Shown here: piece after piece, positions 3,825 to 57,676 of the stretch
How positions within the stretch are numbered: position 1 is the first letter of the stretch
Layout: the number at the start of each line of letters is the position of its first letter
Assembly (NCBI RefSeq): GCF_020520425.1
Contig: NC_079487.1
Location: 113,804,141 to 113,868,140 of the forward strand
Direction: 5' to 3'
Source of the DNA: Spinacia oleracea
Taxonomy: Eukaryota > Streptophyta > Magnoliopsida > Caryophyllales > Amaranthaceae
Length of the DNA: 64,000 nt
The notes under the pieces: model-generated
Databases searched by the model: none
What the model saw: only the letters and a program-made list of their open reading frames with translations
What the model was told of the DNA's origin: nothing
Program-made: the position numbers and the translations under genes

Positions 3825-6800
3825 TCAACAAGCAAGAGCAACATCTTGAGATTGTTGAATTTCAGTGTCAGCATCTTTTTTAATCTCAGAGGCACCATCT
3901 ATAATCTCAGTATCAGCATCCATAATCTCAGGCTCAGCGTCTTTAATCTTAGTCTCAGCGTCTTTAATCTCAGACACGGCATCTTTAACCAACGGTGTCT
4001 TCTGGAACTCATTTCGCAGTTGTCCGCAAGCTGCACTTGCATCGAGACCCCTTGTCTGGCGTACACTTGTCGTTATCTTGCGGGACTCTAGAACAGAAGC
4101 AAAGGCAATCACCTGTACTAATACATTCTAGTCAATATCGGTATTTGAATGAGCTAATAATCAGCTCTGAATTCCAGACTTGGTGCTTTGTTGAACTTTT
4201 TAAGAGGAAGAAAAGAAAGGTGTGGAGAACCTAGCATTTCAAATTTACTAGAGAAAGTAAAAATATACCGCCTTCCTGTAGGGCCGTCGATACTCAGAGC
4301 CCTCGATTGGATTGAACGGTATCAGGTTCACATGATGACCTCGTCCCCATTGCTGTAGTAGCTCAGCAAGTTCTTTTGCATGCTCTACTGAATCATTTAC
4401 TCCAGCTGAAAGATAGACAATGGCTAGTTAAAATTTTGCCCTCTACCCAAACGCTAATGGAAAATTCAGTTGAACCGTAGTACCTAAAAGAGTGTACTCA
4501 AAAGACACTCGTCGGTTAGTTTCAAGTAAGTAATCCCTGCAATCTTTCATCAGTGCTTCCAGGGGGTAAGCTTTTGCACTTGGGACGATCTGTTCTCTAA
4601 GCTTCTGATTTGGTGCATGTAAGCTGAAGCACGAGAATCAAAGCAGATGAATTTAGTTAACCGTTAAACACCATCACCAGTGGATACTTCTTCTACTGAT
4701 GGATGTTAGGATATCTAAATATGTCAAACCTTACTCCTAAATCCTAATCAATCAGAACTACCCGAAAAAACCCATAACAAACACATTCTAGGATTCTGGG
4801 ATAGAGTCAAGAAGTACAACATACAAGTAAGAGCAGTAATAGAACTACTTCCAAAGCAGTGACAAAAAACTACAAATAATAATGGTGGGAGGAAAAGATT
4901 GAGATTTTTTTTACTCCCGCTTTCTAAAAAAGTAGTCACTAGTCATGTCGCCCCATATCTTTTACAAAACAGAATAGGTTTTTCTGTATGTCTCCAAGCA
5001 TTAAATGGAACTATTATACAGTGATGCATATAAAAAAGACGAGGTACTCAATTACATATCCAGGATTTGCTTCAGATGCTGGTGACATTTTTCAGGCTCC
5101 AAAAAAGCTTCTCAAGATGAATAGGAGTCTAAATTAGCCATATGAAGCAAATATGACATCTACTCCGTATATAAAAATGACCTAGCAAATCCGACATAAA
5201 GGGCCTAATGCTATAAATCACAATTGCGAGACCTTCCTAAGGCACGGCAGAAAATGTCAACAACAACTTTCATGAAGTCTCACGGAACGCACAATTGCAT
5301 AATTGACAGATTGACGTTAGAATATATCACCATACATCATAAAATGAAGCAGAGTGGAGTCTTTGGGCCTCCTAAGGAGTCTCTCGAGGCTGGTTGGGGT
5401 CCATATCAATAGCACCTTGAAAGATCTCCACGTTCTAACAAAAATTGAACAAGCACCCAAGACAGGAAGAAAGCCCAAATTGAGGTCACCACACGTACTA
5501 CTCCCTCCGCTCCTAAATGATCTTCCTGTTTCCATAAATAACGTTCTTATTTGATCTTCTTGTTTTTATTTTTGGACATAATTTTTTACCCAAATACCCT
5601 TCTTTATCATTATAGTTACCAAAAGTACCTAAGAATCTTTACATATTCTACCATAAATTTCCCCACCATCTCTTATTTAATTCATTCACATTTCCCCATT
5701 CACCCACCCAACCCCACTTTTATGATTTTTTATTACTTTAATAAAAATATCTTCTCTTTACTTCATTTCTTTATTACTTTCTCTTACACCCAGTCATTAC
5801 TCTTACACTCGATCATTACAAGATTCCAATTTCTTCAATCCGTGGACTATGGACCATGGTGCACATAGAGCATGGTGCACCATGTGTACCAAAAGAACAC
5901 ATGTGCATAAACAAAAGAACATGACACTACGACAAAAGAACATGCAATATAATGTTTTCCTTTTTTGTTATAAAAAATCACAAATTATTAAAAATATAAA
6001 AAAATATATGTCCATGTTCCTTTTACGTAACCAGATGTTCTTTTAATTATATCCTAATGTTTTTAAGGTGCACCATGTTCTATGTGCACCATAGTCCACC
6101 TTCTAAATTGCGCAATTTCTTAATTTCCACCCAAAACCCCAAATTGGGAGTACATCAAACTATATATACCTGTGAATATACTTAGTTAGCATCATGAATC
6201 ACCATAACGAGATCTATAATAAGTGGTTATTGTTGTTGATGACTTGATATTAGCATCATAAAACAGCTCTGTCAGGAAAAGGGCAATGCATGAAGAAAAT
6301 GGGACTGCTTCGACTTCTAGTACACATTAAAAAAAGGGGGGGGGGGGGGGGGGGGGGTTACACAGTCATGTAAGCCATGAGATTTGTGCCACTTAATATC
6401 ACACAAAAATAATGATTCACAGAGATAATTTCTACAGAGTAGTAGACATTGTCAGGGTGATGCACCTGACAGCTAATGTGGATTGAAGCTTGTAGGAAGC
6501 CAGTTTCTTGATTGTGTTAGGAACCCCCACAGTTGATATCGTGATCATTCTTTGCCCAATTTGTATGTCCTGAAAATTCAAGACATGGCCACTTTAAATG
6601 AGTGTAAAATCCAAAACTAGCATACTGAGACAACCAAGTCATACAGGACATAATAACATGACAAAAAAAAGGCATGCAAGGGGGAAAAACACATTTCTAT
6701 GATCTGTTCCTAAAGAAGGCAACTTCTCCCATTGAACTTGCATCTTAAGAGGACCATGGTGTAAAGAACTGATATTAATGGCAGAAATATAATAATTTGA

Positions 6801-39553: not shown

Positions 39554-39978
39554 TGTTTGGGCTCCCAATTAATTCTCAATTGGGCCACTAAGTCCAAAGC
39601 CCAATGGCTCTAAACAACAACATCAAACCTACCAATGGCTATTCAGCCATCCATTAAGGCCCAAGGCCCAATAACAATAAGTGACCTATGGGCATTTATT
39701 ATGCAAACACTATAAATAGGCCGCCAAGGCTCACACCTCAAGGTACGTCCAATTTATCGCCTTAAGACTACTCTTCTAGAGAACTTCTCTCTAGAATCCG
39801 AGCATCATTCTTACTTAGGCATCGGAGGGGCTTTCCTCGGAAACACCCCCGAGGCCAGTGACTTTGCTCTTGTGCAGGTGAATTCGGACTCCACTCATTC
39901 AAACAAGCAAGATCTTCAACACATACAAAAGGGCCTTCATTCGAAGCCCATTGTTTCCATCTTTACAACACCGGAACA
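39554..39978 (+). repeat. 5' LTR of the Tat element (425 bp)
   Basis: Begins TGTTTGGGCTCC and ends ACACCGGAACA. It contains a TATA box (TATAAATAGG at 39711-39720) followed by a CT-rich initiator region. A long plus-strand frame reads through part of it from 39872, but transcription starts in the LTR and the likely gag start lies after it. Confidence 0.95.
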
Positions 39979-39981
39979 ATT

Positions 39982-39999
39982 TGGCGCCGTCTGTGGGGA
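39982..39999 (+). other. Primer-binding site
   Basis: TGGCGCCGTCTGTGGGGA starts 4 bases after the LTR. TGGCGCC with a following G-rich stretch is the usual tRNA-3'-end complement in plant gypsy elements. I did not determine which tRNA it matches. Confidence 0.75.
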
Positions 40000-40048
40000 A
40001 GAACACTTCAAAGCCTTTGGAAGACATCAACCACCTCTTTCCGCGAAA

Positions 40049-43000
40049 ATGGTGAATGATGTTGTTAACAATGACGACGATATGATGGTGCGGTCAGATT
40101 CAGAATCTGACCAAGAGGGGCACCCTCAATCGATGGCGAGGTCACAGCCAAGCAGAGCTACGACCGCCACAAATGCAGGACCTCCGATTCCAACTAGGGA
40201 AGAGCTCACTGCGGCCATGACCATCATGCAAAACTTCCTCTTCAATGAGAAGCAGCAAGGACTGGCAAACGACCGCAGAGAAGAGAGGAGGACCAGGCGA
40301 AGGCTGAACGAGCCACCCAGTGCGGAAGTGTCCAGACCCGAACGAGAACTCCTTCCCTTGACAGGAACACACTTGACGTCGAGGTGGACGGAAAGCACGT
40401 GGGACACCCAAAAAAGGGCACAACAGCAACCAGATTGGTTTGCGAGACCATCGCCTACTCCAACAGCTCTCCAAAGCGAATCAACTACTCGTAACACTCG
40501 GATCCGAAGCTCGGTGCTCAGCAGGTTGAGGCCCTCGGTCCACTCAAGGTTAAGACCTTCGATCCACACGAGACTCGGGGTAGGTGAGTCGAGCAGATCT
40601 GGCGAACGTCCCGAGGTCAGTAGCCGAGAAAGAAGAAGAGACAGGAGGCATGATCGAACCCCTAGCCCCCATCGTACGCCCGAACGTTCTAATCATAGAA
40701 CCTCGGCAAACGAAGGCATCAGGGCTAGACTCGGGAAAAGAATCATGACTCCTACGTCATCCCCTTTCTCGGACGAGCTGATTATGGAAGAAATATCGAA
40801 GGTAAGACTGCCAGCTCACCTAACCTACAGCGGAATCACAGATCCGAGGGATCATGTCATCTCCTACGAGCAGCAAATGTTCTTGAGTCCCTACTCCGAA
40901 GCATGCTGGTGTAAATACTTCCCAACCACGCTAACCGGAGTGGCGGGAGAGTGGTTTAGATCGCTGCCGAAAGGATCGATCAAGAGCTGGAAAAAGCTGA
41001 AAAAGAGATTCTGCACACAGTTCGTGAGCAACAATCGCCCCGAGCGAACCACAGCAGAACTGACCTCAATCCAACAAGAAAGAGACGAAAGTCTGAGAGA
41101 ATTCATGGCCAGATTCATGAAGGAATCAACAAACATACCAAACTTGCAGCCAGACGTGGCCATCTTCGCCTTGAAGCACGCGCTCCAGGAAGGGAAGTTC
41201 CGTGACGAACTCTCAATGAAGAACCCCTCCAGAATAGCTGACGTGCTCCAAATGGCTGACGCGTTCATCAGAACCGAGGAGTTCAACAAGGCCGCTGCAA
41301 GACTGAAAGGATCGTCGGATCCGAGAGACACAAAGAATACCCAGAGCAAGCCCGAGGGTAGCTCAAGGAAGGGGAAAGAGAAAGTAGGAGCTAGAGAGAT
41401 GAGCCCGAAGAAAGACGGGAGAAGGGGTGAACTTCAACCCAAGTACACCAACTACACTCCACTAGCTCTGCCCCGAAAGGAGATATTCAGCCTCAACAGA
41501 AATGACGAAAAGTGGAAACTACCTGGGAAGCTCAAGTCCAACCCAGCTCGGAGAAACAAGAACAAATGGTGCGAGTTCCATGATGACTTCGGTCACCATA
41601 CCGAAGAATGCAACTCGCTGAAAGACAACATTGAGGACCTCGTTCGCCGAGGCTACCTGAAACAGTACTTGTTAGACCGAAGGGAGGAAAAAGAAAAGGC
41701 CGCAAGCGGCAAACAACACGAGCAACCCCAGAAAAGGGTCTACGAAGCAACAGGGCACAAGAAAAATGACATCCTAGTGGTGTTCGGGGGACAGAAGTCT
41801 GGCCAGGCCAGCAAAAAACACCTAAGAGCCCTCTCCCATCGGGTCAACTTCAGCGCGGTGGGAGACAACCAGCCACACCCCCCGAACATGACCTTCACTG
41901 CTGATGATTGCTTCGGAGTCCAGTACAAGCATGATGATCCTCTGGTCATCTCCATGGACCTCAATAACCACAACGTACATCGAGTATTAGTCGACGGAGG
42001 AAGTGCCGTCAATATCATCTTCAGAAACTGCTTCGAGCAGCTGATCCTCGAAGAGCCAGAGGAAGCACTGACGAAAGTCAGTTATCCTCTGATCGGATTC
42101 AACGGATCCGCAGCTATCCCTCGAGGAAAGATCACCCTGCCAGTCACAGTGGGCGAAGGCCAGGCAGCAAAAACCCTTCGGGACGAATTTTTGGTGATGG
42201 ACTGCGACTCCGTATACAACGTAATCATGGGGAGAACCATGATTCACAAGATGCAAGCAGTCCCCTCCACATACCACCAGCTGATGATATACGTCTCGGA
42301 TGCAGGATTCGCCGAACGAATCAGGGGTGATCAAGAAGTGGCGAGAAGAACCTGCCACACTGCTGTCCGAAAGCCCAAACTAGAGGACGGCCCCGAGGAA
42401 GAAAAAGGAGCTAAGGGAGAAGAAAGCGAGGCAAAAAGAAGAAGAGCAAGCACGAGCAGCTTGTCTCCCGCAGAAGTTGATGCTCGCCCCGAAACCCTAT
42501 CTCCCGAACCAGATCAAGAAATGGAGGATATCTTCCTCGAAGATAATTCAGACAGGAGCGTCCGAATAGGCAAGGGCCTAAGCTCGGGGCTCCGAATCGA
42601 TTTGATCCGACTACTCAGGGATCACAAAGACATCTTCGCATGGTCAGCAGCAGATATGCCAGGGATAAATCCGAAGCTGATTTGTCACAAGCTGGATGTC
42701 AACGCTGAAGCTCGGCCAATCAAGCAAAAAAAGAGAAATTACTCCTCGGAGAAAAACAAAGCCATCGCCGAGGAGGTTAAAAAGTTGCAAGAGGCCGGAT
42801 TCATCGAACCATGCATGTATCCGAAGTGGCTGGCCAACGTGGTGATGGTCAAGAAAGCGAACGGCTCATGGCGAATGTGCGTAGATTTCACAGATCTGAA
42901 CCGAGCCTGCCCCAAAGACTGCTATCCCCTGCCAAGGATAGATCAACTGGTTGACTCCACCAGCGGCCATGCACTGCTCAGCTTCATGGATGCCTTTTCA

Positions 43001-43348
43001 GGCTACCACCAAGTATTCATGCACCCCGATGACAGGGCAAAGACAGCGTTCATCACAAGCGCAGGAGTGTTCAACTACAAAATGATGCCTTTCGGCTTAA
43101 AAAATGCCGGAGCCACCTACCAGAGGTTAGTTGACCACGTCTTCGCCGACCAGAAAGGGAGGAACGTGGAGGTCTACGTGGATGACTCCATCGTAAAAAG
43201 CATCAAGGAGGAAGACCATGTCAAAGACTTGGCAGAGACCTTCGGAAATCTGAGGAAATACAGCATGAAGCTGAACCCAAAAAAAATGCGTCTTCGGGGT
43301 GAAGTCAGGGAAATTCCTCGGATTCATGGTGAGCGAAAGAGGAATTGA
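40049..43348 (+). CDS. Gag-protease-reverse transcriptase ORF of the Tat element (1099 aa, ends at a frame break)
   Basis: It encodes capsid, protease and the reverse transcriptase of the retrotransposon. Seen in order: a charged N-terminal region; the retrotransposon Gag domain from about residue 253 (LPAHLTYSGITDPRDHVISY, with WF..LP..SI.SW); a zinc-knuckle-like CEFHDDFGHHTEEC at about 507; an aspartic-protease motif VLVDGGSAVN at about 645; then RT with FIEPCMYPKW (about 917), RMCVDFTDLN, FMDAFSGYHQ, MPFGLKNAGATYQR and the catalytic YVDDS (about 1040). After NPKK the frame leaves pol and ends within about 20 residues, at 43348. The next frame (from 43299) continues the protein. The start is taken as the first ATG after the PBS (MVNDVV). 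An in-frame ATG inside the LTR was rejected. Confidence 0.9.
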   Translation: MVNDVVNNDDDMMVRSDSESDQEGHPQSMARSQPSRATTATNAGPPIPTREELTAAMTIMQNFLFNEKQQGLANDRREERRTRRRLNEPPSAEVSRPERELLPLTGTHLTSRWTESTWDTQKRAQQQPDWFARPSPTPTALQSESTTRNTRIRSSVLSRLRPSVHSRLRPSIHTRLGVGESSRSGERPEVSSRERRRDRRHDRTPSPHRTPERSNHRTSANEGIRARLGKRIMTPTSSPFSDELIMEEISKVRLPAHLTYSGITDPRDHVISYEQQMFLSPYSEACWCKYFPTTLTGVAGEWFRSLPKGSIKSWKKLKKRFCTQFVSNNRPERTTAELTSIQQERDESLREFMARFMKESTNIPNLQPDVAIFALKHALQEGKFRDELSMKNPSRIADVLQMADAFIRTEEFNKAAARLKGSSDPRDTKNTQSKPEGSSRKGKEKVGAREMSPKKDGRRGELQPKYTNYTPLALPRKEIFSLNRNDEKWKLPGKLKSNPARRNKNKWCEFHDDFGHHTEECNSLKDNIEDLVRRGYLKQYLLDRREEKEKAASGKQHEQPQKRVYEATGHKKNDILVVFGGQKSGQASKKHLRALSHRVNFSAVGDNQPHPPNMTFTADDCFGVQYKHDDPLVISMDLNNHNVHRVLVDGGSAVNIIFRNCFEQLILEEPEEALTKVSYPLIGFNGSAAIPRGKITLPVTVGEGQAAKTLRDEFLVMDCDSVYNVIMGRTMIHKMQAVPSTYHQLMIYVSDAGFAERIRGDQEVARRTCHTAVRKPKLEDGPEEEKGAKGEESEAKRRRASTSSLSPAEVDARPETLSPEPDQEMEDIFLEDNSDRSVRIGKGLSSGLRIDLIRLLRDHKDIFAWSAADMPGINPKLICHKLDVNAEARPIKQKKRNYSSEKNKAIAEEVKKLQEAGFIEPCMYPKWLANVVMVKKANGSWRMCVDFTDLNRACPKDCYPLPRIDQLVDSTSGHALLSFMDAFSGYHQVFMHPDDRAKTAFITSAGVFNYKMMPFGLKNAGATYQRLVDHVFADQKGRNVEVYVDDSIVKSIKEEDHVKDLAETFGNLRKYSMKLNPKKMRLRGEVREIPRIHGERKRN
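43270..43300 (+). other. One-base frame break at an A-run between the two pol frames
   Basis: An uninterrupted run of eight A lies at 43279-43286. Upstream, RT reads in one frame; just downstream, the conserved continuation reads in another, offset by one base. A one-base length change in the run accounts for it. It could be a real mutation, an assembly or sequencing length error, or slippage. The homopolymer makes the second plausible. Confidence 0.75.
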
Positions 43349-45800
43349 TGCGAACCCAGACAAAGTCCAAGCGGCATTGGATTTACCCGAGCCGAAGACC
43401 AAGAGAGATGTGCAGAGGCTAACCGGCAGGTTAGCCGCACTAACAAGGTTCATATCAAAAGCCTCGGACAAGGGAGCCCCCTTCTTCAAGGCACTGAAAC
43501 CAAAGAACCTCCCCGGAGGAGAAGCAGAACCAGTCAAGAAAAAGGGGGTCCCGAGGAAAGTGGATCCCGAACTGATATGGGAACAGGAGCAAAAAGAAGC
43601 TTTTCAGCAACTCAGAGCCCACCTAGCTCAACTGCCGACACTGGCCAGACCAAAGGAGGGGGAAACCCTGTACCTATATGTCGCAGTTAGCCCTGGAACC
43701 GTCAGCGCAGTGCTTCTTCGGGAAGAAGAAAAGAAGCAACAGCCAATCTACTTCACCAGCCGAACACTTACAGGAGCCGAAACCCGGTACCCACTCATCG
43801 AGAAAGTCGCATATGCAGTAGTGGTAGCTGCACGAAAACTGAGGCCATACTTCGACTCCCACCAGATCACAGTGCTAACTGACCAACCGCTCGAAAAAGT
43901 ACTCGACAAAATAGAGAGGTCAGGAAGATTGGCTGCCTGGGCCTTCGAACTATCAGAGTTCGGCATCAAATATCAGCCGAGGACAGCAATCAAAGCACAA
44001 GCATTGGCAGACTTCTTGGCCGAGTGCTCATACCAGGAAATGTTGGATGATACGAAAAGCACTTGGGAGGTCTTCACTGACGGATCTTCCACAGTAAACG
44101 GCTCAGGGGCAGGAGTTGTACTAATCCCCCCGACGGGGAAAAGCATAGAGTATGCATTGAAGTTCGGCTTCAAAGCAACCAACAACGAGGCCGAATACGA
44201 GGCCGCAATCGCAGGGATAGAGCTTTGTTTATCCCTGGAGGCCGAACATGTTCGCCTCAAAACTGATTCCCAGCTTGTAGCCAACCAGATCCGAGGAGAG
44301 TATGAGGCCAAATGGCCCAGCATGACAGCCTATTTAGCAAAGATTAAATCCTTAACGTCAAAGTTAAGATCCTTTGAAGTCATCCTCATTCCCCGAGGAC
44401 AGAACGCGCAAGCAGACGCACTGTCAAAACTCGCAAGCTCGACACTCATCGACCTAAACAGGTCGGTCCACGTGGAAGTTCACCAGGAGAGAAGCATCGA
44501 CTTGCTACCCACCACAGTATGCAGCTTACGCACCGAACCGAGCTGGATGGACGCAGTAGTTGCATACAAAGAAAGGGGAGAACTTCCTGAAGATAAGCTG
44601 CAAGCGAGAAAACTGAAAAGATTCAACAGATGGTTCATCATCAGCGCCGAAGGAGAGCTCATGAGGAAATCATTCTCTGCTCCGCTGCTAAAATGTGTGG
44701 GTCCAACAGACGCTGACTACATCCTAAGGGAAATCCACCTCGGGATATGCGGAAACCACATTGGAGGTAGGACATTAGCACATAAAGCCCTTCGGGCTGG
44801 GTACTGGTGGCCCACTATGGTTTCCGAGGCAAAGCAGATGGCAAGGAAATGCGAGAAATGCCAAAAGTTCGCACCAGCCATCCATCAACCAGCTCAAGCC
44901 CTACAATCAACACTGTATCCCTTACCATTCGCACAGTGGGGGTTAGACATCATTGGTCCCTTCCCCTCAGCGACGAACCAGAAGAAGTGGTTGATTGTAG
45001 GAGTCGACTATTTTAGCAAATGGATCGAAGCCGAAGCTGTCTCCTCCATCACCGAACCTCAGGTCCGCAAGTTCATATGGCAGAACATCATCACAAGGTT
45101 CGGCATACCAAGACTGATGGTCTTCGACCACGGGAAACAGTTCGACAACACCCCGTTGCAAAAGTGGTGCAAACAGTTCGGCATACACCTAGCATACTCG
45201 GCAGTCTGTCACCCACAAAGCAACGGGCAAGCCGAAGCCGCTAACAAACTCATCCTCAACGCACTCAAGAAAAGAGTCGAGGATGACAAAAACAAATGGT
45301 TAGAAGAGCTACCCGGAACGCTATGGTCCCTTCGGACCACTGAAAAAGAAGCTACCGGACAAACACCGTTCCACCTTGTATACGGATCCGAAGCTGTAAT
45401 TCCTGTGGAAATCGGAACAGAAAGCCTGAGGATCCAGGCATACAACAGGTATGATGGGCTCCAAGGAGAAAGCAACAACCAGCTTCTATCCGAAGCTCTC
45501 GATCTACTGGATGAAGCTCGGAACGATGCAAGGACACTCAACGCAGCCTATTTGCAGAGAGTCAACAAGCATTACAACCGAAGAGTCAACGCCAGACCCC
45601 TAAAAGTCGGTGATCTAGTACTCAGAAACGCCGCCTCGGTTCAGAAAGGACGGATCCATGGCAAACTCTCAGCCACTTGGGAAGGACCATACATCATCCA
45701 TTCCGAAAAAAGGCCAGGCACGTATATGCTGAAACAGTTAGATGGAACAATTCTGAAGAACCATTGGAATACCGATGTTCTCAAGAAATATTTTGTATGA
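43299..45800 (+). CDS. RT C-terminus, dual RNase H and integrase frame of the Tat element (833 codons open)
   Basis: It continues the pol polyprotein. In order: the RT connection (GFMVSERGIDANPDKVQA); the gypsy-type RNase H (LYVAVSPGTVSAVLL, ETRYPLIEKVAYAVV, about residues 125-240); a second, archaeal-type RNase H from about 255 (WEVFTDGSS, NNEAEYEAAI, DSQLVANQ, ADALSKLAS); then integrase with an HHCC zinc motif (about 480-525) and a DD35E core: Asp in LDIIGPF (about 550), Asp in FDHGKQF (about 610) and Glu in GQAEAANK (about 645). A C-terminal chromodomain-free tail ends VLKKYFV. Two RNase H domains in tandem are the Tat-clade hallmark. The nominal start at 43299 is only the first ATG of the open frame. 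Natural expression would be as a fusion with the preceding ORF. Confidence 0.9.
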   Translation: MKSGKFLGFMVSERGIDANPDKVQAALDLPEPKTKRDVQRLTGRLAALTRFISKASDKGAPFFKALKPKNLPGGEAEPVKKKGVPRKVDPELIWEQEQKEAFQQLRAHLAQLPTLARPKEGETLYLYVAVSPGTVSAVLLREEEKKQQPIYFTSRTLTGAETRYPLIEKVAYAVVVAARKLRPYFDSHQITVLTDQPLEKVLDKIERSGRLAAWAFELSEFGIKYQPRTAIKAQALADFLAECSYQEMLDDTKSTWEVFTDGSSTVNGSGAGVVLIPPTGKSIEYALKFGFKATNNEAEYEAAIAGIELCLSLEAEHVRLKTDSQLVANQIRGEYEAKWPSMTAYLAKIKSLTSKLRSFEVILIPRGQNAQADALSKLASSTLIDLNRSVHVEVHQERSIDLLPTTVCSLRTEPSWMDAVVAYKERGELPEDKLQARKLKRFNRWFIISAEGELMRKSFSAPLLKCVGPTDADYILREIHLGICGNHIGGRTLAHKALRAGYWWPTMVSEAKQMARKCEKCQKFAPAIHQPAQALQSTLYPLPFAQWGLDIIGPFPSATNQKKWLIVGVDYFSKWIEAEAVSSITEPQVRKFIWQNIITRFGIPRLMVFDHGKQFDNTPLQKWCKQFGIHLAYSAVCHPQSNGQAEAANKLILNALKKRVEDDKNKWLEELPGTLWSLRTTEKEATGQTPFHLVYGSEAVIPVEIGTESLRIQAYNRYDGLQGESNNQLLSEALDLLDEARNDARTLNAAYLQRVNKHYNRRVNARPLKVGDLVLRNAASVQKGRIHGKLSATWEGPYIIHSEKRPGTYMLKQLDGTILKNHWNTDVLKKYFV

Positions 45801-46809
45801 TCTCTGTCTGTAAACCAAGTAAGTTGTTTAATGAGAAGAGGAAAGCCATTGGCACCATGTGTTTCATTAAACTTATCTCTACATTTATTGTCCCTTTATA
45901 TATATATGCAGCCTCGGATCTGATCAATCCGAGACCAAAAACAGGTTGACTTTGCCCATTCCTTGATAAAATGCAAGAAATGACCAAATCATACACTTCA
46001 GGGAACCGTCCAGAATCCTCGGATTCGCGGTACCCTAATAAAATTTGTTCGCAACAAACAGTCGCTCGAATCAAGTTATAAAACTCCGGCTCAGATCCAC
46101 GGATCGCCGAAGGCATAACTAAAGAGGCAGACTAGCGATCTCTTGCCCAGGTTTCCGAACCACAAGAGATCGGAAGAACAATCCAAACCTCTGAGCAGAT
46201 CGACGGATTTGAAGAGTCTGGAAACTAAAGAGTCTCTTAGCAGATCTACGGATTTGAAGAACTCGCAAAACTAAAGAGTCTCTTAGCAGATCTACGGATT
46301 TGAAGAACTCGCAAAACTAAAGAGTCTCTTAGCAGATCTACGGATTTGAAGAACTCACAAAGTCAAAGAGTCTCTTAGCAGATCTACGGATTTGAAGAAC
46401 TCGCAAAACTAAAGAGTCTCTTAGCAGATCTACGGATTTAAAGAGCTCGCAAGATCAAAAGGTTTTTAGCAAGTCTACAGAAAGAGGAGCTCGAGAAATC
46501 TACGGATTTAAAGACCTAAAAATTGCGAAAGAACAAGTTGAAAAGAAGCAGCCAAGTAACAAACATTCATTTTTTATTCAATATTTGGGGGAAGTACAAA
46601 CACATCGAAAACCTCAAAAATTGAAAACAAAATGAAACAAGTTAAAATCGGCAGCCATCAACAGACAATACCGGCCTACCGAAGTACTAAAGAAAGCAAA
46701 AAGAAATGAGTACAACGCAGCGCCGAGGCAAAAGGGGGAAAAGCAAGCACATATTCGGAAGTCCTCAACTGGAACCGACCGACTCTGAAGAAGACGACTG
46801 CCCGAATCC
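45801..46809. other. Spacer between integrase and the antisense gene of the Tat element
   Basis: It contains the 46-bp tandem array (listed separately) and the likely 3' UTR of both the pol transcript and the antisense gene. A TATATATATG tract lies at 45897-45910. No coding potential on either strand. Confidence 0.6.
46195..46460. repeat. 46-bp tandem array inside the Tat element (about 5 copies)
   Basis: AGTCTCTTAGCAGATCTACG followed by GATTTGAAGAACTCGCAAAA recurs at 46231, 46277, 46323, 46369 and 46415, an exact 46-bp period. Copies differ by only a few bases. Degraded copies flank the array (to about 46510). Tat elements often carry tandem repeats in this 3' untranslated region. Confidence 0.9.
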
Positions 46810-49800
46810 CTAACTCTTGGGAGTCTCAGAAGCGGCCCCTAGGGGAGCATCCTTCGAAGAACCCCCAGCAGTGGTATCACCTTCGGAAGTTGCCTTCTGG
46901 GCCCGAGCCTCTGCAAGAGCAGCTTGGCGTTCAGCTTCAGCTTCATCTCGATCAGCTTGGCATTCCACCAAGTGGTCCTCGGCCTGCATCCATAGAGGAA
47001 CTTTCTCGTTCCAAGGGAAGTGAGGCATGTGCTTCGCAAACATGCGCCGAGCACCCAGGATGCCGTTCCAGTACTGCTCTCTACACTGATCAGCAGTGTA
47101 GAGGTTGACTCGCTCCTGCTCCAGCTTCCGAATATAGTCATCTTTTTCCCGAAGCTTCAGCCGAAGGACAGGCACCTTATCAGCTTGCTGCTGGATCAGC
47201 TCCCGATGCTGGACAAAATGGTGGAGCCTTAACTCCGCCTCTTTACGCTCCTTGTCGGCCGCTTCAAATTTAGACTTCATCTCCTGGAAGAGTCTATCTT
47301 TTTCCTCAAGTTCGCTAGCGAACTTAGCGGCCATATCCTTCTTCTCCTCAGCAAAGGAAGCGATCTTCTCAGCATCCTCTTCAACTCGGAAGATGAGCTG
47401 GCCAACCTCGGTCCCGATCTTCTCAGCAGACTCTCTAGCCTCGCGACTATAGTGAAGGTACAGCTGCTTGAGTTCCGTAAGCTCGGAGAGGAGTTGCCCA
47501 GCCTTCTGGTCCAAAATGGGAATATCACGAGCATAAGCCTCACGATATTTCCTCAGTTGTTTCTCCTCAACCGAGCTACACTCGGAAGCGAACGAAGACC
47601 AGAAAACAGCCTGGGAACGAGAGAAAGATGAGCAAAATAGGAAAAACATAAAACAAAAACACAACTCAAAGAGAAAAATCTAGCAAATTACCTCGTTCAG
47701 ATAGTACTGGGCCATCATTGCCGGATTCCTCTCTTCGGCCCCAGGAACCCTCCACTGCGGGTTAGCACGAAGCAGATTCTCCCGAGCAGCCTCGGGGCCC
47801 ACCAAGGATCCCACGTGAGCCAAAGGGTCCTCTCCCAAAATCGGAGCCCTGGCATATCGAGCCATCGCCTCCCTTACTTCTTCGGGGATCCGTTTTAGCG
47901 GAACATCCGAACAGGGATCAGCATGGATCAGCCTATCCAGGGCCGAGGTAGAAGTAGAACCCAAAGTTGAGTGGCGCCTCTTCCTCGTCAAACCTTGCTC
48001 GGGCTGCTCCTCCTCTCCAGCAGAGGGAACCTCCTTCTGAACCTCGGGGACCGCAGCTTCGGGGCCCGAGAGATCTATCATCTCCTTGTCTGGACTCTTC
48101 TCCCTCTCGAAGGGAAGATCAGCAGACTCCTTCTTCTCCCCAGCTACCTCAGGGACATCCGAACCAGGAACAAAATCGGCTTCAATCGCCTCCATCACCT
48201 CGGTGATATCCTGGATTTCGATCCCCAAAGCAGCAGATGGTTTAAGGGGAGAAGGGATGATATCTTCCTCGATCAGCGGCTGATCCACGGCCGGCGGTTC
48301 AGCAACCACCACACTCTTTAACTTCTGCCCTGGCAAGGGCATGAAGTGAAGAAGATTCTTAGGAGGAGGCATGACTTCCGAAACTGCTTCCTGCATAGCA
48401 AGCATTCAAAGATTAGTTTCCGAAAAGGGGAGAAACGAACTACAAAAACTCCAAGTCAGAACAAATACCTTCTCCGAGGGCTGAGAAGCCTTCGCTTTCT
48501 TCGGATGCGTGGAAGGCCTCAAAAGAGTGCTACCCTTCCTTTTGCGTTGATCCTAAAAAGGGGAGACCAAGGGTCAACGAATGTAAAAGAAGAAAAAGGA
48601 AGAAATAGAGAAAAAAGCGGGAAATACCCGGTTCCTAGATAAAGAGATATCTATCCGAGCCGGAGATGAAACCGAAGGAACGGCACGCGGCACAGCGTCA
48701 GTCCCAGGACCCTAAAAAGATGGTCCAGGACCAAGACGTTAGCCGACGGCCAACCGAAAAGAAAAAGATAAACAGAAAATCGAGCCTATAAATGAACACT
48801 CACCGGATCCGAAGTCGTCTTCAACTCAGGAAGCACAACCTTCACAGGAACAGCTTCAACAGAAGAGGCGGAATCCCACGGATCAGCTCGAACTTCGGAT
48901 ATCCGAGCAACCCCCAAAGGAGACAACACGTAATCCTTCAGACGAGGATTACGAGGGTTATCTTTTCCGAACTTGTACTCGGGAGCCGGGTCGTGAATAG
49001 TCTTCAAATCCAAAGAAATGCCCAACTTCTTAGGATCAATGCAGCTAAAGCCGTACTCTGCAAAAACAAAGCACAAAACATGTCAGCAAAACGAAACAGG
49101 AAAGAGGACAAACTCACTGAAAAAACGGTCTCAGCCGAAAGACACCTACCCCTGTCAAAAATCCTGCTGAGACCGGCAACAGCAAGAATGTCCTCCCTCA
49201 GAATGTAATTGAGATTCGGGAGCCAGCTAGACGGCAGTCGGTGGTTATCCTCTTGAGCCAAGAACCACTGGAGGAGGTCCACATAGTGGCGATGGTTCCG
49301 ATCTGGAGCCGCCACACCCCTCATATCAGGATCAGGAGCCACGAACCACTTCGGAGGACGATAAAAGTTGGGATGCTTCGGATCCGTCGGCACACGGACG
49401 AGCAACCACTCCGTCTTCCAATTGTGGTCAGAGCTAAGGTAGGGGTACGCCGTGATGTAGTTCGGATCCCCCCTCTTTCGGGACTTCTTGTTGACAATGG
49501 TCCACCAACCATACCCATCACCCTTGGAAGCATGGTTGAGAACCAGATCGTGAAGATCCCGAAAAATAGCGACAGAGCAAGGGAAATTGACGAAGTCACA
49601 CACCCATCTAAATCCGATTATGTGCCTCATAGATTTGGGTGTGAGCTGGGCCAAACTAATGTTGTACGACACCAAAACCTCGGATACGAACGGATCCAAA
49701 GGAAAGCGGAGACCATTCTCCAAATGGTGAGTATACACGGAAATGAACCCCCTCGGTGGATGAGTCACCTGAGGACGCTCTTGTTCAGGAAGCTCGCACC

Positions 49801-50197
49801 AGTACCCCAAGGCATGCTGAATTCCGTATAGCTCCTCGGCCTTCCGATGATAATTCCCTAACTTCGCTTCCACCAACCAGTCACCGCTGACCGATTTCTC
49901 CAACGGACCGTCGATCTGCGTGGTCTCATGCAAAATTGAGGCATACTTGCCCTTCGGATCAGCTTCCGACCAATGAACTGGAAACTCGGAGTAACGACGA
50001 CGAACACCCGAAAAACCAGCTCTCTCACCAGAGGTTGCACGTTCATCTTCGGAAGCATCCCAACCAATCGAACTCTTCTCCAACGGCCTCTCCGAAGGTC
50101 GACCCCTCGAAGATTTCGGTAACCTCCCCGAAGGCACGTTCTCTCTCTCACTAGAGGAGCCAACAACGAACTTGTTTTTGCCCCTATTCTTTGCCAT
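46810..50197 (-). CDS. Antisense spliced gene of the Tat element (6 exons, 989 aa)
   Basis: Exons (minus strand): 50197-49150, 49057-48804, 48711-48628, 48552-48469, 48390-47692, 47610-46810. GT-AG borders and phases join to 989 codons plus stop. Residues about 150-205 (THHLENGLRFPLDPFVSEVL, then SLAQLTPKSMRHIIGF) fit the plant 'putative gypsy-type transposon' domain (Pfam Transposase_28, PF04195). A basic, Ser-rich N-terminus may be a nuclear signal. The middle (about 490-720) is acidic and Pro-rich. Residues about 724-960 are a long charged coiled coil, ending in an Ala/Ser/Gly-rich tail. Antisense additional ORFs are known in Tat elements; their function is not established. The promoter would be the TATA box at 50451-50460. 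Confidence 0.82.
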
Positions 50198-50450
50198 GGT
50201 CGCGAAATCTCGATCTAGGGTTTAGATTGAGGGGTAGAAGGAAGAACGAAGAAAAAAGGAGAACTCAGAAACAAATTACCTTTTTCCGAAGCGGAATTCG
50301 CCGATAAAGCGAACAACACAAGTTCCCGAAGTCTAAAGTTGGCCGAATTTCGTAGATCTGAAGAAGCAAATTGCACTGCGATCGCCGGAATCTAGAGAGA
50401 GAATGGGTTTGAAATAAGGAGTAAAAAGTTTAAAAGGAGCAAGGCACCCA

Positions 50451-50460
50451 GTATTTATAG
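50451..50460 (-). promoter_or_regulatory. TATA box for the antisense gene
   Basis: CTATAAATAC on the minus strand, about 255 bp upstream of the antisense ATG and inside the element, before the 3' LTR. Pyrimidine-rich sequence follows. It gives the antisense gene a promoter independent of the LTR. This is inferred from sequence only. Confidence 0.6.
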
Positions 50461-50621
50461 AAAAGAGAAAGGGCGCATCAACTTCCTCAAACCCACGATC
50501 TCCATGACACAGTACAATTCCCAACACTTGTCATCAATGCAAATCATCCCTTTTCAAAAAAGAGAGGGAACTTTCGGACTTCTGACAGCTGGAAACCCAC
50601 CCATTTAATTCTAAATGGACC

Positions 50622-50634
50622 GGGTCTGGGGGGG
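50622..50634 (+). other. Polypurine-tract-like sequence before the 3' LTR
   Basis: GGGTCTGGGGGGG, then CATGT, then the LTR start TGTTTGGG. A G-rich tract at this place would prime plus-strand DNA synthesis. The 5 bp between tract and LTR is slightly unusual. Confidence 0.6.
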
Positions 50635-50639
50635 CATGT

Positions 50640-51064
50640 TGTTTGGGCTCCCAATTAATTCTCAATTGGGCCACTAAGTCCAAAGCCCAATGGCTCTAAA
50701 CAACAACATCAAACCTACCAATGGCTATTCAGCCATCCATTAAGGCCCAAGGCCCAATAACAATAAGTGACCTATGGGCATTTATTATGCAAACACTATA
50801 AATAGGCCGCCAAGGCTCACACCTCAAGGTACGTCCAATTTATCGCCTTAAGACTACTCTTCTAGAGAACTTCTCTCTAGAATCCGAGCATCATTCTTAC
50901 TTAGGCATCGGAGGGGCTTTCCTCGGAAACACCCCCGAGGCCAGTGACTTTGCTCTTGTGCAGGTGAATTCGGACTCCACTCATTCAAACAAGCAAGATC
51001 TTCAACACATACAAAAGGGCCTTCATTCGAAGCCCATTGTTTCCATCTTTACAACACCGGAACA
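50640..51064 (+). repeat. 3' LTR of the Tat element (425 bp)
   Basis: Same length as the 5' LTR and, comparing line by line, I see no substitution. It ends ACACCGGAACA and is followed by the target duplication GAATC. Confidence 0.95.
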
Positions 51065-51069
51065 GAATC

Positions 51070-51213
51070 TAATTAGTTAAGCATTGAAACTAACTAGTTA
51101 TGCAATGAAACCAATTAGTTATGCAATGAAACTAATTAGTTATGCAATAGAACCAATTAGTTAAGCCATTAAAGTGGTCTTTTCGGTAAGACAGTCTTAC
51201 ACAAAAGTAGTCG
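51070..51213. mobile_element. Right half of the split MULE-type MITE, with ~24-bp tandem repeats
   Basis: Four to five copies of an AATTAGTTATGCAATGAAAC-type unit (period about 24 bp) are followed by the terminus GGTCTTTTCGGTAAGACAGT ending AAAAGTAGTCG, and the 9-bp duplication TTTCTTGTA. Partial copies of the same unit lie in the left half (39518-39548). It is non-coding. Confidence 0.8.
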
Positions 51214-53859: not shown

Positions 53860-55736
53860 GGCCCTGCTTGGCAATTGGTTGTTGGCTGGTTTACTTGGCT
53901 TGTTTGACTGGTTGTTTGTGTTGGCTTTTTATGTTGGATGTTTGACCGTAGATTGACTAAAAATGTGTTTGGTAAAGTTGACTGTTAACTACAAGATGTT
54001 TCATAAAGGCCTTGTTTGGCAAATGGCTTTTTGCTGGCTTTTTGGTTGGCTTTTGGCTGTTGGCTTTTTAATCTGGTCAAACATCCAAAAAATGTGTTTG
54101 GTAACTGGCTTTTTAGCGTACTGAAAAGCCAGCTTTTTCGCCAAAAATGAAAAGCTAGTAACACTAGCTTTTTGGAGTTGGCTTTTGGCTTTTCACTATC
54201 TAAATTACTTTTTTGTCCTTGTTTTTTACTAATTAACTAATAATTAATAATTAATAATTAATAATTAATAATTAATAATTAATAATTAATAATTAATAAT
54301 TAATAATTAATAATTAATAATTAATAATTAATAATTAATAATTAATAATTAATAATTAATAATTAATAATTAATAATTAATAATTAATAATTAATAATTA
54401 ATAATTAGTGATTAGTGATTATTGATTAGTGATTAGTGATTAGTGATTAGTGATTAGTGATTATTGATTAGTGATTAGTGATTAGTGATTAGTGATTAGT
54501 GATTATTGATTAGTGATTAGTGATTATTGATTATTGATTAGTAATTAGTAATTAGTAATTAATAATTAATAATTAATAATTAATAATTAGTAATTAGTAA
54601 TTAATAATTAATAATTAGTAATTAATAATTAATAATTAGTAATTACTAATTAGTAATTAATAATTAGTAATTAATAATTATTAATTATTAATTATTAATT
54701 ATTAATTATTAATTATTAATTATTAATTATTAATTATTAATTATTAATTAATAAATTTTTATTTTAATTAATAATTACGGAGTAATAATTAATAACTAAT
54801 AATAAATAATCAATAATTAATAATTAATAATTAATAATTAATAATTAATAATTAATAATTAATAATTAATAATTAATAATTAATAATTAATAATTAATAA
54901 TTAATAATTAATAATTAATAATTAATAATTAATAATTAATAATTAATAATTAATAATTAATAATTAATAATTAATAATTAATAATTAATAATTAATAATT
55001 AATAATTAATAATTAATAATTAATAATTAATAATTAATAATTAATAATTAATAATTAATAATTAATAATTTCGGAGTATTAATTAATGACTAATAACTAA
55101 AAGTGAATAATTAATTAATAATTAATCATTAATTATTAATTATTAATTATTAATTATTAATTATTAATTATTAATTATTAATCATTGATTATTTATTATT
55201 AGTTATTAATTATTACTCCGTAATTATTAATTAAAATAAAAATTTATTAATACTATTGCATAAAGTAATTTATTTTTAATTTATATTTATTTATTTGTAA
55301 TTACGTTTTACTTCGTACACAATACACAGTATGTATTGAAAAATGAATAAAAGACATTAAATGTCCTTAAATGTCATTTTACATAGCTACAGCCAACAGC
55401 CAACAACTGATTTTACCAAACATATTTTTAACCAATCCATAGTCAAACAGCCAACTTGAACAGCCAGTCAAACCAGCCAAGTAAAACAGCCGACAGCCAA
55501 CAGCCAACGGCCAATTGCCAAACAGGGCCAAAATGTACTTAGTAAAATGAAAAGCCAACAACCAGTGTAAAAAAGTTGTTCTTACTAGCTTTTAGATTTT
55601 GGTGGAAAAGACGACTTTTTATCCAAGAAAAACGTCAATTTACCAAACATCTATATTAGTTGTTTGACCACATGAAAAAGCCAATAGCCATAAGTCAGTG
55701 AAAAAGCCAATAAAAAGCCAATTACCAAACAAGCGC
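53860..55736. mobile_element. Two interleaved TIR elements enclosing an AT satellite
   Basis: Left end A (53860-54000, GGCCCTGCTTGGCAATTGG) pairs in inverse with 55380-55529 (CCAATTGCCAAACAGGGCC). Left end B (54008-54200, GGCCTTGTTTGGCAAATGGC) pairs with about 55540-55736. The order A-B-A'-B' is crossed, not nested. Both are related GCTTTTTGGC-rich hAT-like MITE ends. Sequence between is the heptamer satellite. Confidence 0.65.
54231..55250. repeat. AATTAAT heptamer satellite with internal inverted repeat
   Basis: A 7-bp period runs for about a kilobase: AATTAAT units, a GATTAGT variant block (about 54408-54540), then blocks in opposite orientation (about 54675-54750, 55125-55190). A ~75-bp unique arm, with an AAATTTTTATTTTAATTAAT stretch and TTACGGAGTAAT, at about 54740-54816 recurs inverted at about 55178-55252, with a smaller GGAGTATTAATTAATGACTA piece between. 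Confidence 0.9.
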
Positions 55737-57676
55737 TATGTGTTCTGGACTTCTGGATAGTAGTTTTTTTCTTCTTATATTTTGCCTGTTTGTAATTCTT
55801 GTAAAAAATATAAAAAAAAAAGGTCGAGATTTGATCTCGAAAAATCAAATTGATATTTAATCTATAGGTGTGGATAGAGATGTTAATATTAGTTCATCCA
55901 ACAAGTTAGCTCAACAAAATTCTACTAATAATGATATATTGTATAGAGATTCCTGAATGTGGATTGGTTGTGAACTCGGGATATTTGTTTGACTATATTT
56001 CACCATTTTTAAATTAATATAGCAGCCTAATTAATTTATTCATACTCTTTGTTTAATAATACAATTGGCATTTAGGTGTATACTTGCCATTAATCTAATT
56101 AGCTTAAAATGTTTTTTCTAATTTGTAGTTCAGAGCATATGCAATTAATTAAGTAATCTCTTTCCAGGTGCTAACCTATGCCAGCTACATCCATTTGGCA
56201 ATCTTAAAACTCTGATTATTCCCTTCTGCATTCTCTATTTTATATCTAGAGATGCGACCTAATCCTTTGACTTTACTTTTCGTGATATCATTTGATGGCA
56301 AATTCTTTTGCATTCTTTTGTATTTTTCCTCACTAATTTTTTTTTATTTTTTTAAAGTTGATAGAAAATATGGTTTGATAGATTATAATTCATAAAAAAT
56401 TAAAAATAAAAGAGAAAGGTGGTTTTGCTACTTTGTCTGGCCATATTTTGATCGGCTAATTTGTCTGGTCAATTATATATTTATATGATCAGATTGTCTG
56501 ACAGAAAACCTAATTTACGAGACTTTTATTTTCTTATATCTAAAGTGGTGGAAGCTTTTGTTAGTTGAAAGTAAGATACAAAGTACCATTAATGTTTTCA
56601 TTTCAAAGACATATTTTGTGGTAATGTTGGGTTATAGTTTTGCACAAATTAATACTTTAAACAAAACTAGGACATATTTTGTGGTAATGTTGGGTTATAG
56701 TTTTGCACTAATTAATACTTTAAACAAAACTAAATAATTCGTAGTAGAATAATGTTGCATTAATATTTTAAATGATTCATATAATACGGAATTAGAAAAC
56801 CTAGCTAGTTATTTAGTGTTCAACTTGAACCTAACGTTTGGACTCGTTCACATTCAACTTAGCCCAAACATTATTTAAATTACAAAATTTATAACAAAGC
56901 TAAAATTCGTTAAGTTGCATCATTTTTATGCACGCGATGCGTGCGAATATAAGAAATAGAGTTGTGTTATTACATTTAAATCTGACATAACATGTAAAAA
57001 ATATATTATAAATACGATGCGTGCAATTGTGCGAATATAAGAAACATATAAGTTAGATAGAGTCGAACGCATATAAACAAATTGATTAAAATGGTAAAAA
57101 TTTATTTAAGGGGCTAAATATGATTGATCAAAATGCTTTTTTGGGCTTTTCTTATTGGGTAGGTTCAAGTTGTCATTATATTCTCTTTCAATGACCGTGG
57201 AGGGTATTTTATTAATCCAATGGGGACACCAAAAGTGAATTTACTAAAATAACCTCACATATTCGCTTATATAACAGAGATTAATGTTTTGCTTAAGTTT
57301 TGAGATCCTCAAATATTCATAATAATGTAAACATCAAGTATAGTATAGTAAAATTATTCCAAACATGTTCACGAGTTGAGTCTTTTAAGTCGAACTTAGT
57401 TATGTTTGGCTCATACGGAGTGAAAAATGTCGAGTAGAAATCGTGTTTGATGGACTTGAATTCACAGGCGGTTCTTGAGGTGTGCGGGGTGAACGACAAC
57501 ACATGCCCCAAATTTCAGATACAATATAATTAGTTTTGTAAGTGTTAACAAAATTGAAGTAGTGATTAAGGTGTTGTTCGGTAATACCCAAGATGTTGGG
57601 TTTAATTCTTAACAATTCCTTTTTTATTCTTTCCTCCTCTTTTTTTTTTTCCTTTTAGTTGATTAAGGGTCTTCTT
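55737..57676. other. Intergenic DNA, no gene seen
   Basis: AT-rich. It contains a 63-bp tandem duplication (56608-56733, listed separately) and otherwise no coding frame above background and no delimited TE. Confidence 0.4.
56608..56733. repeat. 63-bp tandem duplication
   Basis: GACATATTTTGTGGTAATGT and the 43 bases after it occur twice head-to-tail, with a single visible difference (CACAAATT versus CACTAATT). It is a recent local duplication. Confidence 0.9.

What the first reader, a model, noticed from the sequence alone, without database searches (positions are those of the whole stretch)
46810..50460. Antisense, six-exon gene with its own TATA box inside a young Tat retrotransposon
Six minus-strand exons join through GT-AG borders and matching phases into 989 codons, running against gag-pol. 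A TATA box (50451-50460, minus) lies inside the element. The protein combines a PF04195-like domain near residues 150-205, an acidic middle and a ~240-residue coiled coil. Antisense additional ORFs are known in Tat elements but their role is not. Intact splicing in a copy this young suggests the gene is maintained. It could bind Gag, act in the nucleus, or produce sense/antisense RNA against the 3' end.
Basis: partly seen in the sequence, partly recalled or inferred. Interest (0 to 1): 0.75.

Follow-up and report, generated by a model that had tools for sequence, protein, structure and literature searches.

The report
Spliced antisense gene inside plant retrotransposon
A young plant jumping gene carries, on its opposite strand, what looks like a real multi-exon gene whose introns and protein sequence have been kept by natural selection; the gene family was known, but its exon layout gives a clue to where it came from.

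Summary
Six minus-strand exons (50197-46810) join through five GT-AG introns in matching phases into 989 codons, near a TATA box. The element is a young Ty3/gypsy copy: 425-bp LTRs identical, GAATC target duplication. It very probably belongs to the cluster printed as 'Spinacia oleracea 1' (PMC11963269, Table 1), so an antisense TRP28 (PF04195) ORF here is already known. What I add: (1) 38 of 40 copies examined keep the spliced frame and all five GT-AG pairs; (2) the protein is under purifying selection as strong as pol in the same copies (0.34 against 0.33), and dN/dS is 0.11-0.31 in 8 pairs from three divergent TRP28 families of the same genome; (3) representatives of these families, 20-26% identical in exon 1, have intron 1 at the same alignment column and phase. 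So TRP28 and coiled-coil 'ORFs' look like exons of one old gene. Antisense introns should survive reverse transcription because the genomic RNA cannot splice them, which favours a DNA-level origin (inference). Best mechanism: a separately transcribed, spliced accessory gene for an oligomeric, probably nuclear, regulatory protein. Transcription, splicing and function were not observed here.

The parts
39554..39978 (+). 5' LTR (TG...CA, 425 bp), preceded by TSD GAATC
39872..43348 (+). sense ORF: gag, protease and part of RT (mechanical GTG start, inside the 5' LTR)
   Evidence: domain content read by eye, not searched
43299..45800 (+). sense ORF: rest of pol, in another frame
   Evidence: domain content read by eye; under purifying selection
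46189..46452 (.). 46-bp tandem array, 5.8 copies, between pol and the antisense gene
46573..46578 (-). AATAAA, probable poly(A) signal of the antisense gene (kept in 38 of 40 copies)
46810..47610 (-). exon 6: coiled-coil region and stop
47611..47691 (-). intron 5, 81 nt, phase 0
47692..48390 (-). exon 5: acidic linker
48391..48468 (-). intron 4, 78 nt, phase 0
48469..48552 (-). exon 4: basic, NLS-like clusters RKRK / KKAK
48553..48627 (-). intron 3, 75 nt, phase 0
48628..48711 (-). exon 3
48712..48803 (-). intron 2, 92 nt, phase 0
48804..49057 (-). exon 2
49058..49149 (-). intron 1, 92 nt, phase 1; same alignment column and phase in representatives of three divergent families
49150..50197 (-). 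exon 1: ATG and TRP28 (PF04195) domain, residues 154-216
50215..50279 (-). probable 5'UTR intron, 65 nt, GT and AG kept in 40 of 40 copies
50451..50460 (-). TATA box CTATAAATAC, identical in 40 of 40 copies
50640..51064 (+). 3' LTR, identical to the 5' LTR, followed by TSD GAATC

Best explanation
It is the antisense accessory gene (TRP28 aORF) of a Retand-type Ty3/gypsy element, and it is one multi-exon gene, not a set of separate ORFs. A Pol II promoter of its own, beside the 3' LTR, drives it towards pol. The transcript is spliced (five coding introns and probably one 5'UTR intron) and polyadenylated before pol, giving a 989-aa protein: TRP28 domain in the N-terminal exon, basic NLS-like and acidic linker, C-terminal coiled coil. 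On the genomic RNA the introns read CT..AC and should not be spliced, so reverse transcription copies them unchanged. The gene can therefore keep its introns through round after round of transposition, and this suggests that it entered the element as DNA, not as a processed RNA. Most likely the protein works in the nucleus as an oligomer that acts on the element's own DNA, RNA or chromatin, as a transcription regulator or silencing antagonist; introns may also help the mRNA avoid RNA silencing. SHOWN here: anatomy, splice-frame integrity in most copies examined, selection on the protein, intron 1 position shared between families. INFERRED: transcription, splicing in vivo, nuclear location, regulatory role, DNA-level origin. 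My confidence in a selected spliced gene is about 0.93; in a nuclear regulatory role about 0.45.
For: Spliced frame intact and all five GT-AG kept in 38 of 40 copies; among these the exon indels are -3 (three copies, exon 5) while intron-5 indels are +1, +8 and -1. 120 coding variants in 38 copies: 62 synonymous against 33.7 expected, 0 stop changes against 4.7; z 5.98 in the gene frame. Same constraint as pol in the same 12 copies + window. dN/dS 0.11-0.31 in 8 within-family pairs. Within families A and C, codon position 3 changes most in 22 of 22 exon comparisons, and frame-breaking indels are 8 in 11,805 exon bases against 21 in 1,572 intron bases. Intron 1 at alignment column 407, phase 1, in five of five modelled proteins of four families; the last intron at column 704, phase 0, in the four from the three divergent families. 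No intronless copy seen among 40 scored of 531 and 40 scored of 466 candidates. NLS-like basic clusters in a linker exon of five of five modelled proteins, coil-like stretches in or at the start of the last exon of five of five (home-made rules without a background control). Print: Grande gene23 protein nuclear, own promoter; weak transcription of Retand aORFs (PMC7264820). Intron-bearing plant transcripts are less prone to become RDR6 templates (PMC7488869 passages).
Against: No RNA data were on hand. No TATA[AT]A in the first 700 bases of 12 of 12 divergent loci. Of these 12, four (L050, L057, L060, L056) were fully modelled, and L056 carries one internal stop. In families A and C four of the five compared copies carry 1-3 frame-breaking exon indels, and six of the eight compared copies hold 1-2 stop codons, so many older copies are decayed. 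One of 17 introns compared reads GT..AA. The window's last intron does not fall in the column of the others (867 against 704); the long linker aligns poorly. Exon counts differ: 6, 4, 5, 5. Two sunflower clusters lack TRP28 (PMC11963269), so it is not universal. TRP28 has no significant sequence match in the PDB and its model was useless (pLDDT 35.6).
Confidence: 0.75

Rival explanations
1. The antisense transcript is a regulatory RNA (dsRNA/siRNA against the 3' part of the genomic RNA) and the protein is incidental.
For: The sense genomic RNA would overlap the whole antisense gene; PMC7264820 raises this possibility.
Against: Selection is on amino acids; no stop change among 120 variants; exon indels in the 38 intact copies are multiples of three.
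Confidence: 0.05
2. Several independent antisense ORFs without splicing, as ORF-finder surveys list them.
For: Exons 1, 5 and 6 each lie in an ORF above 200 aa; the survey used ORF Finder (PMC11963269).
Against: Intron 1 has the same column and phase in representatives of four families; frame-breaking indels are about 20 times denser in introns than in exons; GT..AG kept in 16 of 17 introns compared and in 38 of 40 young copies.
Confidence: 0.03
3. A spliced accessory protein that acts in the particle or cytoplasm (Gag partner, RNA packaging or transport factor), not as a nuclear regulator.
For: The long helical C-terminus fits an oligomeric structural partner; constraint equals that of pol.
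Against: NLS-like basic clusters; the Grande protein is reported nuclear. No direct test here.
Confidence: 0.25
4. A host gene recently captured by this one family.
For: It looks like an ordinary host gene: introns, TATA box, poly(A) signal.
Against: The same gene, antisense to pol in families A and C, occurs in three other families at 20-26% identity in exon 1; print reports TRP28 in all but two of 63 Retand clusters.
Confidence: 0.04

Closest known systems
Antisense TRP28 (PF04195) aORF of Retand-lineage elements; cluster 'Spinacia oleracea 1' (Vicient 2025, PMC11963269; parts 1-3 of 5 read, plus a term search)
   Same: Position between pol and the 3' LTR, antisense, TRP28 domain, LTR 425 bp, POL-3'LTR 4,850 bp (here 4,839), one tandem array
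   Different: The paper counts ORFs of 600 bp or more one by one; 'intron' and 'splicing' do not occur in its main text. Here the ORFs are exons of one gene
gene23 of maize Grande (Gomez-Orte 2013; known to me only through PMC7264820, parts 1-2 of 3 read; the paper itself is not held)
   Same: Antisense between pol and 3' LTR, own promoter, nuclear protein, possibly regulatory
   Different: Exon structure unknown to me; no sequence was compared here
HBZ and other antisense genes of HTLV-type retroviruses (as told in PMC11963269 and PMC7264820)
   Same: Works like: an antisense accessory gene of a retroelement with a nuclear regulatory protein
   Different: Not tested as a relative; there the antisense promoter lies in the 3' LTR, here the TATA box lies inside the element beside the LTR
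Intron-marked retrotransposition reporters (passage in PMC12786077)
   Same: A gene antisense to the element, carried through reverse transcription
   Different: In the reporter the intron is sense to the element and is lost on transposition; here the introns are antisense and are kept

Membership tests
Retand-lineage Ty3/gypsy element | RT phylogeny places it in Retand | not tested
   No RT tree was built; the filing rests on the features below and the size match to a published cluster
Retand-lineage Ty3/gypsy element | Long POL-3'LTR region (2.9-6.6 kb in print) | tested here: met
   45801-50639 = 4,839 bp
Retand-lineage Ty3/gypsy element | Antisense ORF with TRP28 (PF04195) in that region | tested here: met
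   43 bits against a 26.2-bit cutoff
Retand-lineage Ty3/gypsy element | Tandem repeats in the element, most often between pol and 3' LTR (about half of clusters) | tested here: met
   46189-46452, 46 bp x 5.8
Retand-lineage Ty3/gypsy element | aRH (additional RNase H) domain between RH and INT | not tested
   Feature from PMC6317226 passages; the domain was not searched
Cluster 'Spinacia oleracea 1' | LTR 425 bp, internal region about 10,719 bp, one tandem array | tested here: met
   425 bp; internal 10,661 bp (39979-50639, 0.5% off); one array. No sequence comparison; species inferred from 894 Mb with 6 large contigs (fit to spinach recalled)
One spliced antisense gene (my claim) | Conserved intron position and phase between divergent members | tested here: met
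   Intron 1 in five of five proteins of four families
One spliced antisense gene (my claim) | Spliced transcript in RNA | not testable with these tools
   No RNA collection on hand
Nuclear regulator like HBZ / gene23 | Nuclear localisation and effect on transcription | not testable with these tools
   Only NLS-like motifs

The most novel reading that the evidence does not exclude
Retand elements carry an intron-rich cellular-type gene, captured as DNA and locked in antisense, whose introns are maintained because splicing shields its mRNA from RNA silencing while its TRP28-coiled-coil protein counteracts silencing of the element in the nucleus: an antisense, spliced anti-silencing gene shared by Retand elements of flowering plants.
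Probability: 0.15. Interest if true: 0.85.

Novelty: new variant of a known kind. Interest (0 to 1): 0.58.

Why it matters
Print leaves open both the origin and the function of Retand antisense ORFs (PMC11963269, PMC7264820). One multi-exon gene with old introns changes both questions. An RNA-mediated capture would be expected to lack introns, so conserved antisense introns favour DNA-level capture. The full-length protein (TRP28 + linker + coiled coil) becomes the right object for structure prediction, localisation and binding tests, in place of ORF fragments. Constraint equal to pol says that the protein matters to the element, not only the antisense RNA. The prediction can be tested in any plant with RNA-seq and a Retand family.

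Tried and rejected
Single-sequence AlphaFold2 of exon 1 gave pLDDT 35.6, so no fold search was made. PDB sequence searches with exon 1 alone (two weak matches, E 0.67 and 0.8) and with a six-member exon 1 profile (none up to E 1) gave nothing usable. IMG/VR viral contigs: 8 pattern hits, none a relative. RNA-only and separate-ORF readings were rejected on selection and intron evidence. The sense-strand frame that shares wobble positions also scored high (z 4.58) but has 32 stops; it mirrors the gene frame. In one search the simple splice model invented extra introns in several loci; final models of four loci were set by reading the borders. A sunflower paper on aORFs (PMC11728184, passages) deals with Tekay and Athila elements and did not bear on this gene.

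Selection of data: the 40 copies are the 40 scored of 748 candidates by similarity to part of exon 1, so old and broken copies are under-represented and '38 of 40' is not a genome-wide rate. L015 (other or missing sequence in exon 6) and L038 (2-base insertion in exon 1) were dropped from the 38-copy variant tests; L015 and L034 were left out of the per-region rates. The pol comparison used 12 of the 39 other copies: the six most divergent and six others; several do not cover the whole stretch, and L071 and L072 have large gaps. The 12 divergent loci were picked by hand from the 150 scored of 2698 PF04195 candidates, mostly for long frames; 4 of 12 entered the cross-family alignment. Within-family introns were compared for families A and C only, five pairs; pairwise dN/dS used eight pairs and skipped gapped and stop codons.

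Full report
WHAT IS THERE. The window holds one complete LTR retrotransposon at 39554-51064: two identical 425-bp LTRs, a GAATC target duplication on both sides, sense ORFs at 39872-43348 and 43299-45800 that read as gag-pol by eye, a 46-bp tandem array, and the antisense gene. The introns are short, T-rich and GT-AG. The other donor-like GT at 49117 is in the wrong phase for exon 2; the one at 49149 fits. A TATA box lies at 50460-50451. I add a probable 5'UTR intron (50279-50215) and a probable poly(A) signal AATAAA at 46578-46573. Pfam finds only PF04195 (TRP28) above its cutoff, in exon 1, among the four exons scanned (1, 2, 5, 6).

MAINTENANCE IN THIS FAMILY. The whole-genome search scored 40 of 748 candidate copies. 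I read the antisense region of the other 39. With the window, 38 of 40 keep the complete spliced frame, all five GT-AG pairs and start and stop; L015 and L038 do not. Among the 38, exon indels are -3 in exon 5 of three copies, whereas intron-5 indels are +1, +8 and -1. Among 38 copies there are 120 coding variants: 62 synonymous against 33.7 expected from the same base changes at random sites, and no stop change against 4.7 expected. The excess is in the gene frame (z 5.98); the two shifted frames and two of the three sense-strand frames show a deficit, and the third, which shares wobble positions, shows an excess (z 4.58) but contains 32 stops. In 12 copies plus the window, part of pol gives 0.33 (72 variants, 39 synonymous, 3 stop changes) and the antisense gene 0.34 (68 variants, 37 synonymous, 0 stop changes). 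By part: exon 1 0.21, exons 2-5 0.49, exon 6 0.45.

THE SAME GENE IN DISTANT FAMILIES OF THE GENOME. A PF04195 search scored 150 of 2698 candidates, all at 51 bits or more, so above the 43 bits of the window's own gene. Twelve loci (L050-L061) fall into three families: A (L050-L052, L057), B (L053, L054, L058, L060, L061) and C (L055, L056, L059). Five of their exon 1 proteins are 20-26% identical to the window's over the alignment, and these and the window's, six of six, match PF04195. Gene models of L050 and L057 (A, 4 exons), L060 (B, 5) and L056 (C, 5; one internal stop) place intron 1 at the same alignment column as the window's, phase 1 in five of five; the intron before the coiled-coil exon is phase 0 in five of five, and in the same column in A, B and C but not in the window, whose linker is longer. 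In five pairs of families A and C, codon position 3 changes most in 22 of 22 exon comparisons, frame-breaking indels are 8 in 11,805 exon bases against 21 in 1,572 intron bases, and 16 of 17 introns keep GT..AG (repeating). Against intactness: four of these five copies carry 1-3 frame-breaking exon indels, and in the eight pairs six of the compared copies hold 1-2 stop codons; older copies decay. Pairwise dN/dS in those eight pairs is nevertheless 0.11-0.31, so the selection acted in the lineages that gave rise to them. Pol lies on the opposite strand downstream of the gene in L051 and L057 (2 of 12 loci reach it; family A) and beside L056 (family C, L074). Family B was not seen to reach pol.

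INTRONS AND REVERSE TRANSCRIPTION. Searches with joined exons showed no copy without introns: every listed match stops at an exon border (40 scored of 531 candidates, 160 matches, list cut; 40 scored of 466, 80 matches). Unscored candidates were not seen, and the exon 1/2 junction was not searched. This is what an antisense gene predicts: the genomic RNA is sense, its copies of these introns read CT..AC, and they should be carried unchanged. In intron-marked reporters (passage in PMC12786077) the intron is sense to the element and is lost; here the order is reversed. Because intron 1 is shared by families now 20-26% identical, their common ancestor probably had it. Capture through a processed RNA would be expected to leave no introns, so capture at the DNA level is favoured (inference; later intron gain before the split is not excluded). 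PMC7488869 (passages) reports that intron-bearing plant transcripts are poorer templates for RDR6, which suggests a reason to keep introns (inference).

PROTEIN AND MECHANISM. Exon 6 is predicted as long helices. By home-made rules, an NLS-like basic cluster lies in a linker exon of five of five modelled proteins and a coil-like stretch in or at the start of the last exon of five of five (motif rules recalled, no background control). The single-sequence model of exon 1 was unusable. Print reports that the Grande gene23 protein is nuclear and has its own promoter, and that TRP28 is predicted to bind DNA (PMC7264820, parts 1-2 of 3 read; PMC11963269, parts 1-3 of 5). The best reading is an oligomeric nuclear accessory protein that regulates the element. 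A cytoplasmic Gag partner remains possible. An RNA-only role is disfavoured.

WHAT IS KNOWN AND WHAT IS NEW. Print has antisense TRP28 ORFs in all but two of 63 Retand clusters, among them 'Spinacia oleracea 1' (LTR 425 bp, POL-3'LTR 4,850 bp), very probably this family. Neither PMC11963269 nor PMC7264820 contains the word 'intron' in its main text; the latter calls for a look at spliced transcripts. In the listings of the searches made no title or abstract shown described introns in such genes, but two key papers (Steinbauerova and colleagues on extra ORFs; Gomez-Orte 2013) are not held and could report them. So the gene family is known, and the conserved multi-exon structure is, as far as I could see, an addition.

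LIMITS. No RNA was examined. The copy sample is biased to young copies. The TATA box is shown only for this family. Species and cluster identity rest on sizes, not on a sequence comparison with the published element. No RT tree was built.

Noticed in passing
window 43299-43348: In this copy gag-pol reads in two overlapping sense frames, with the change of frame in what looks like the RT region, while the antisense gene is intact. Whether other copies share this was not examined.
   Followed up: no
window 51065-51173: The element sits beside a 21/42-bp tandem repeat, probably its insertion site; the TSD is GAATC.
   Followed up: partly
window, from 54121; GC 19% at 54001-56000: Long AT-rich array with mostly 14-bp spacing.
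   Followed up: no
L050, L052, L057 at about 3273-4051 in gene orientation (L057 to 3911): 101-bp tandem arrays just after the antisense gene in family A, at the same place as the 46-bp array of the window element.
   Followed up: no
whole genome G000: PF04195 gave 2698 first-look candidates in this genome, 150 scored, and rang in 0 of 14 control genomes.
   Followed up: no
window 46189-46452: The number of 46-bp repeats could account for the 58-bp difference between this internal region and the printed cluster mean.
   Followed up: no
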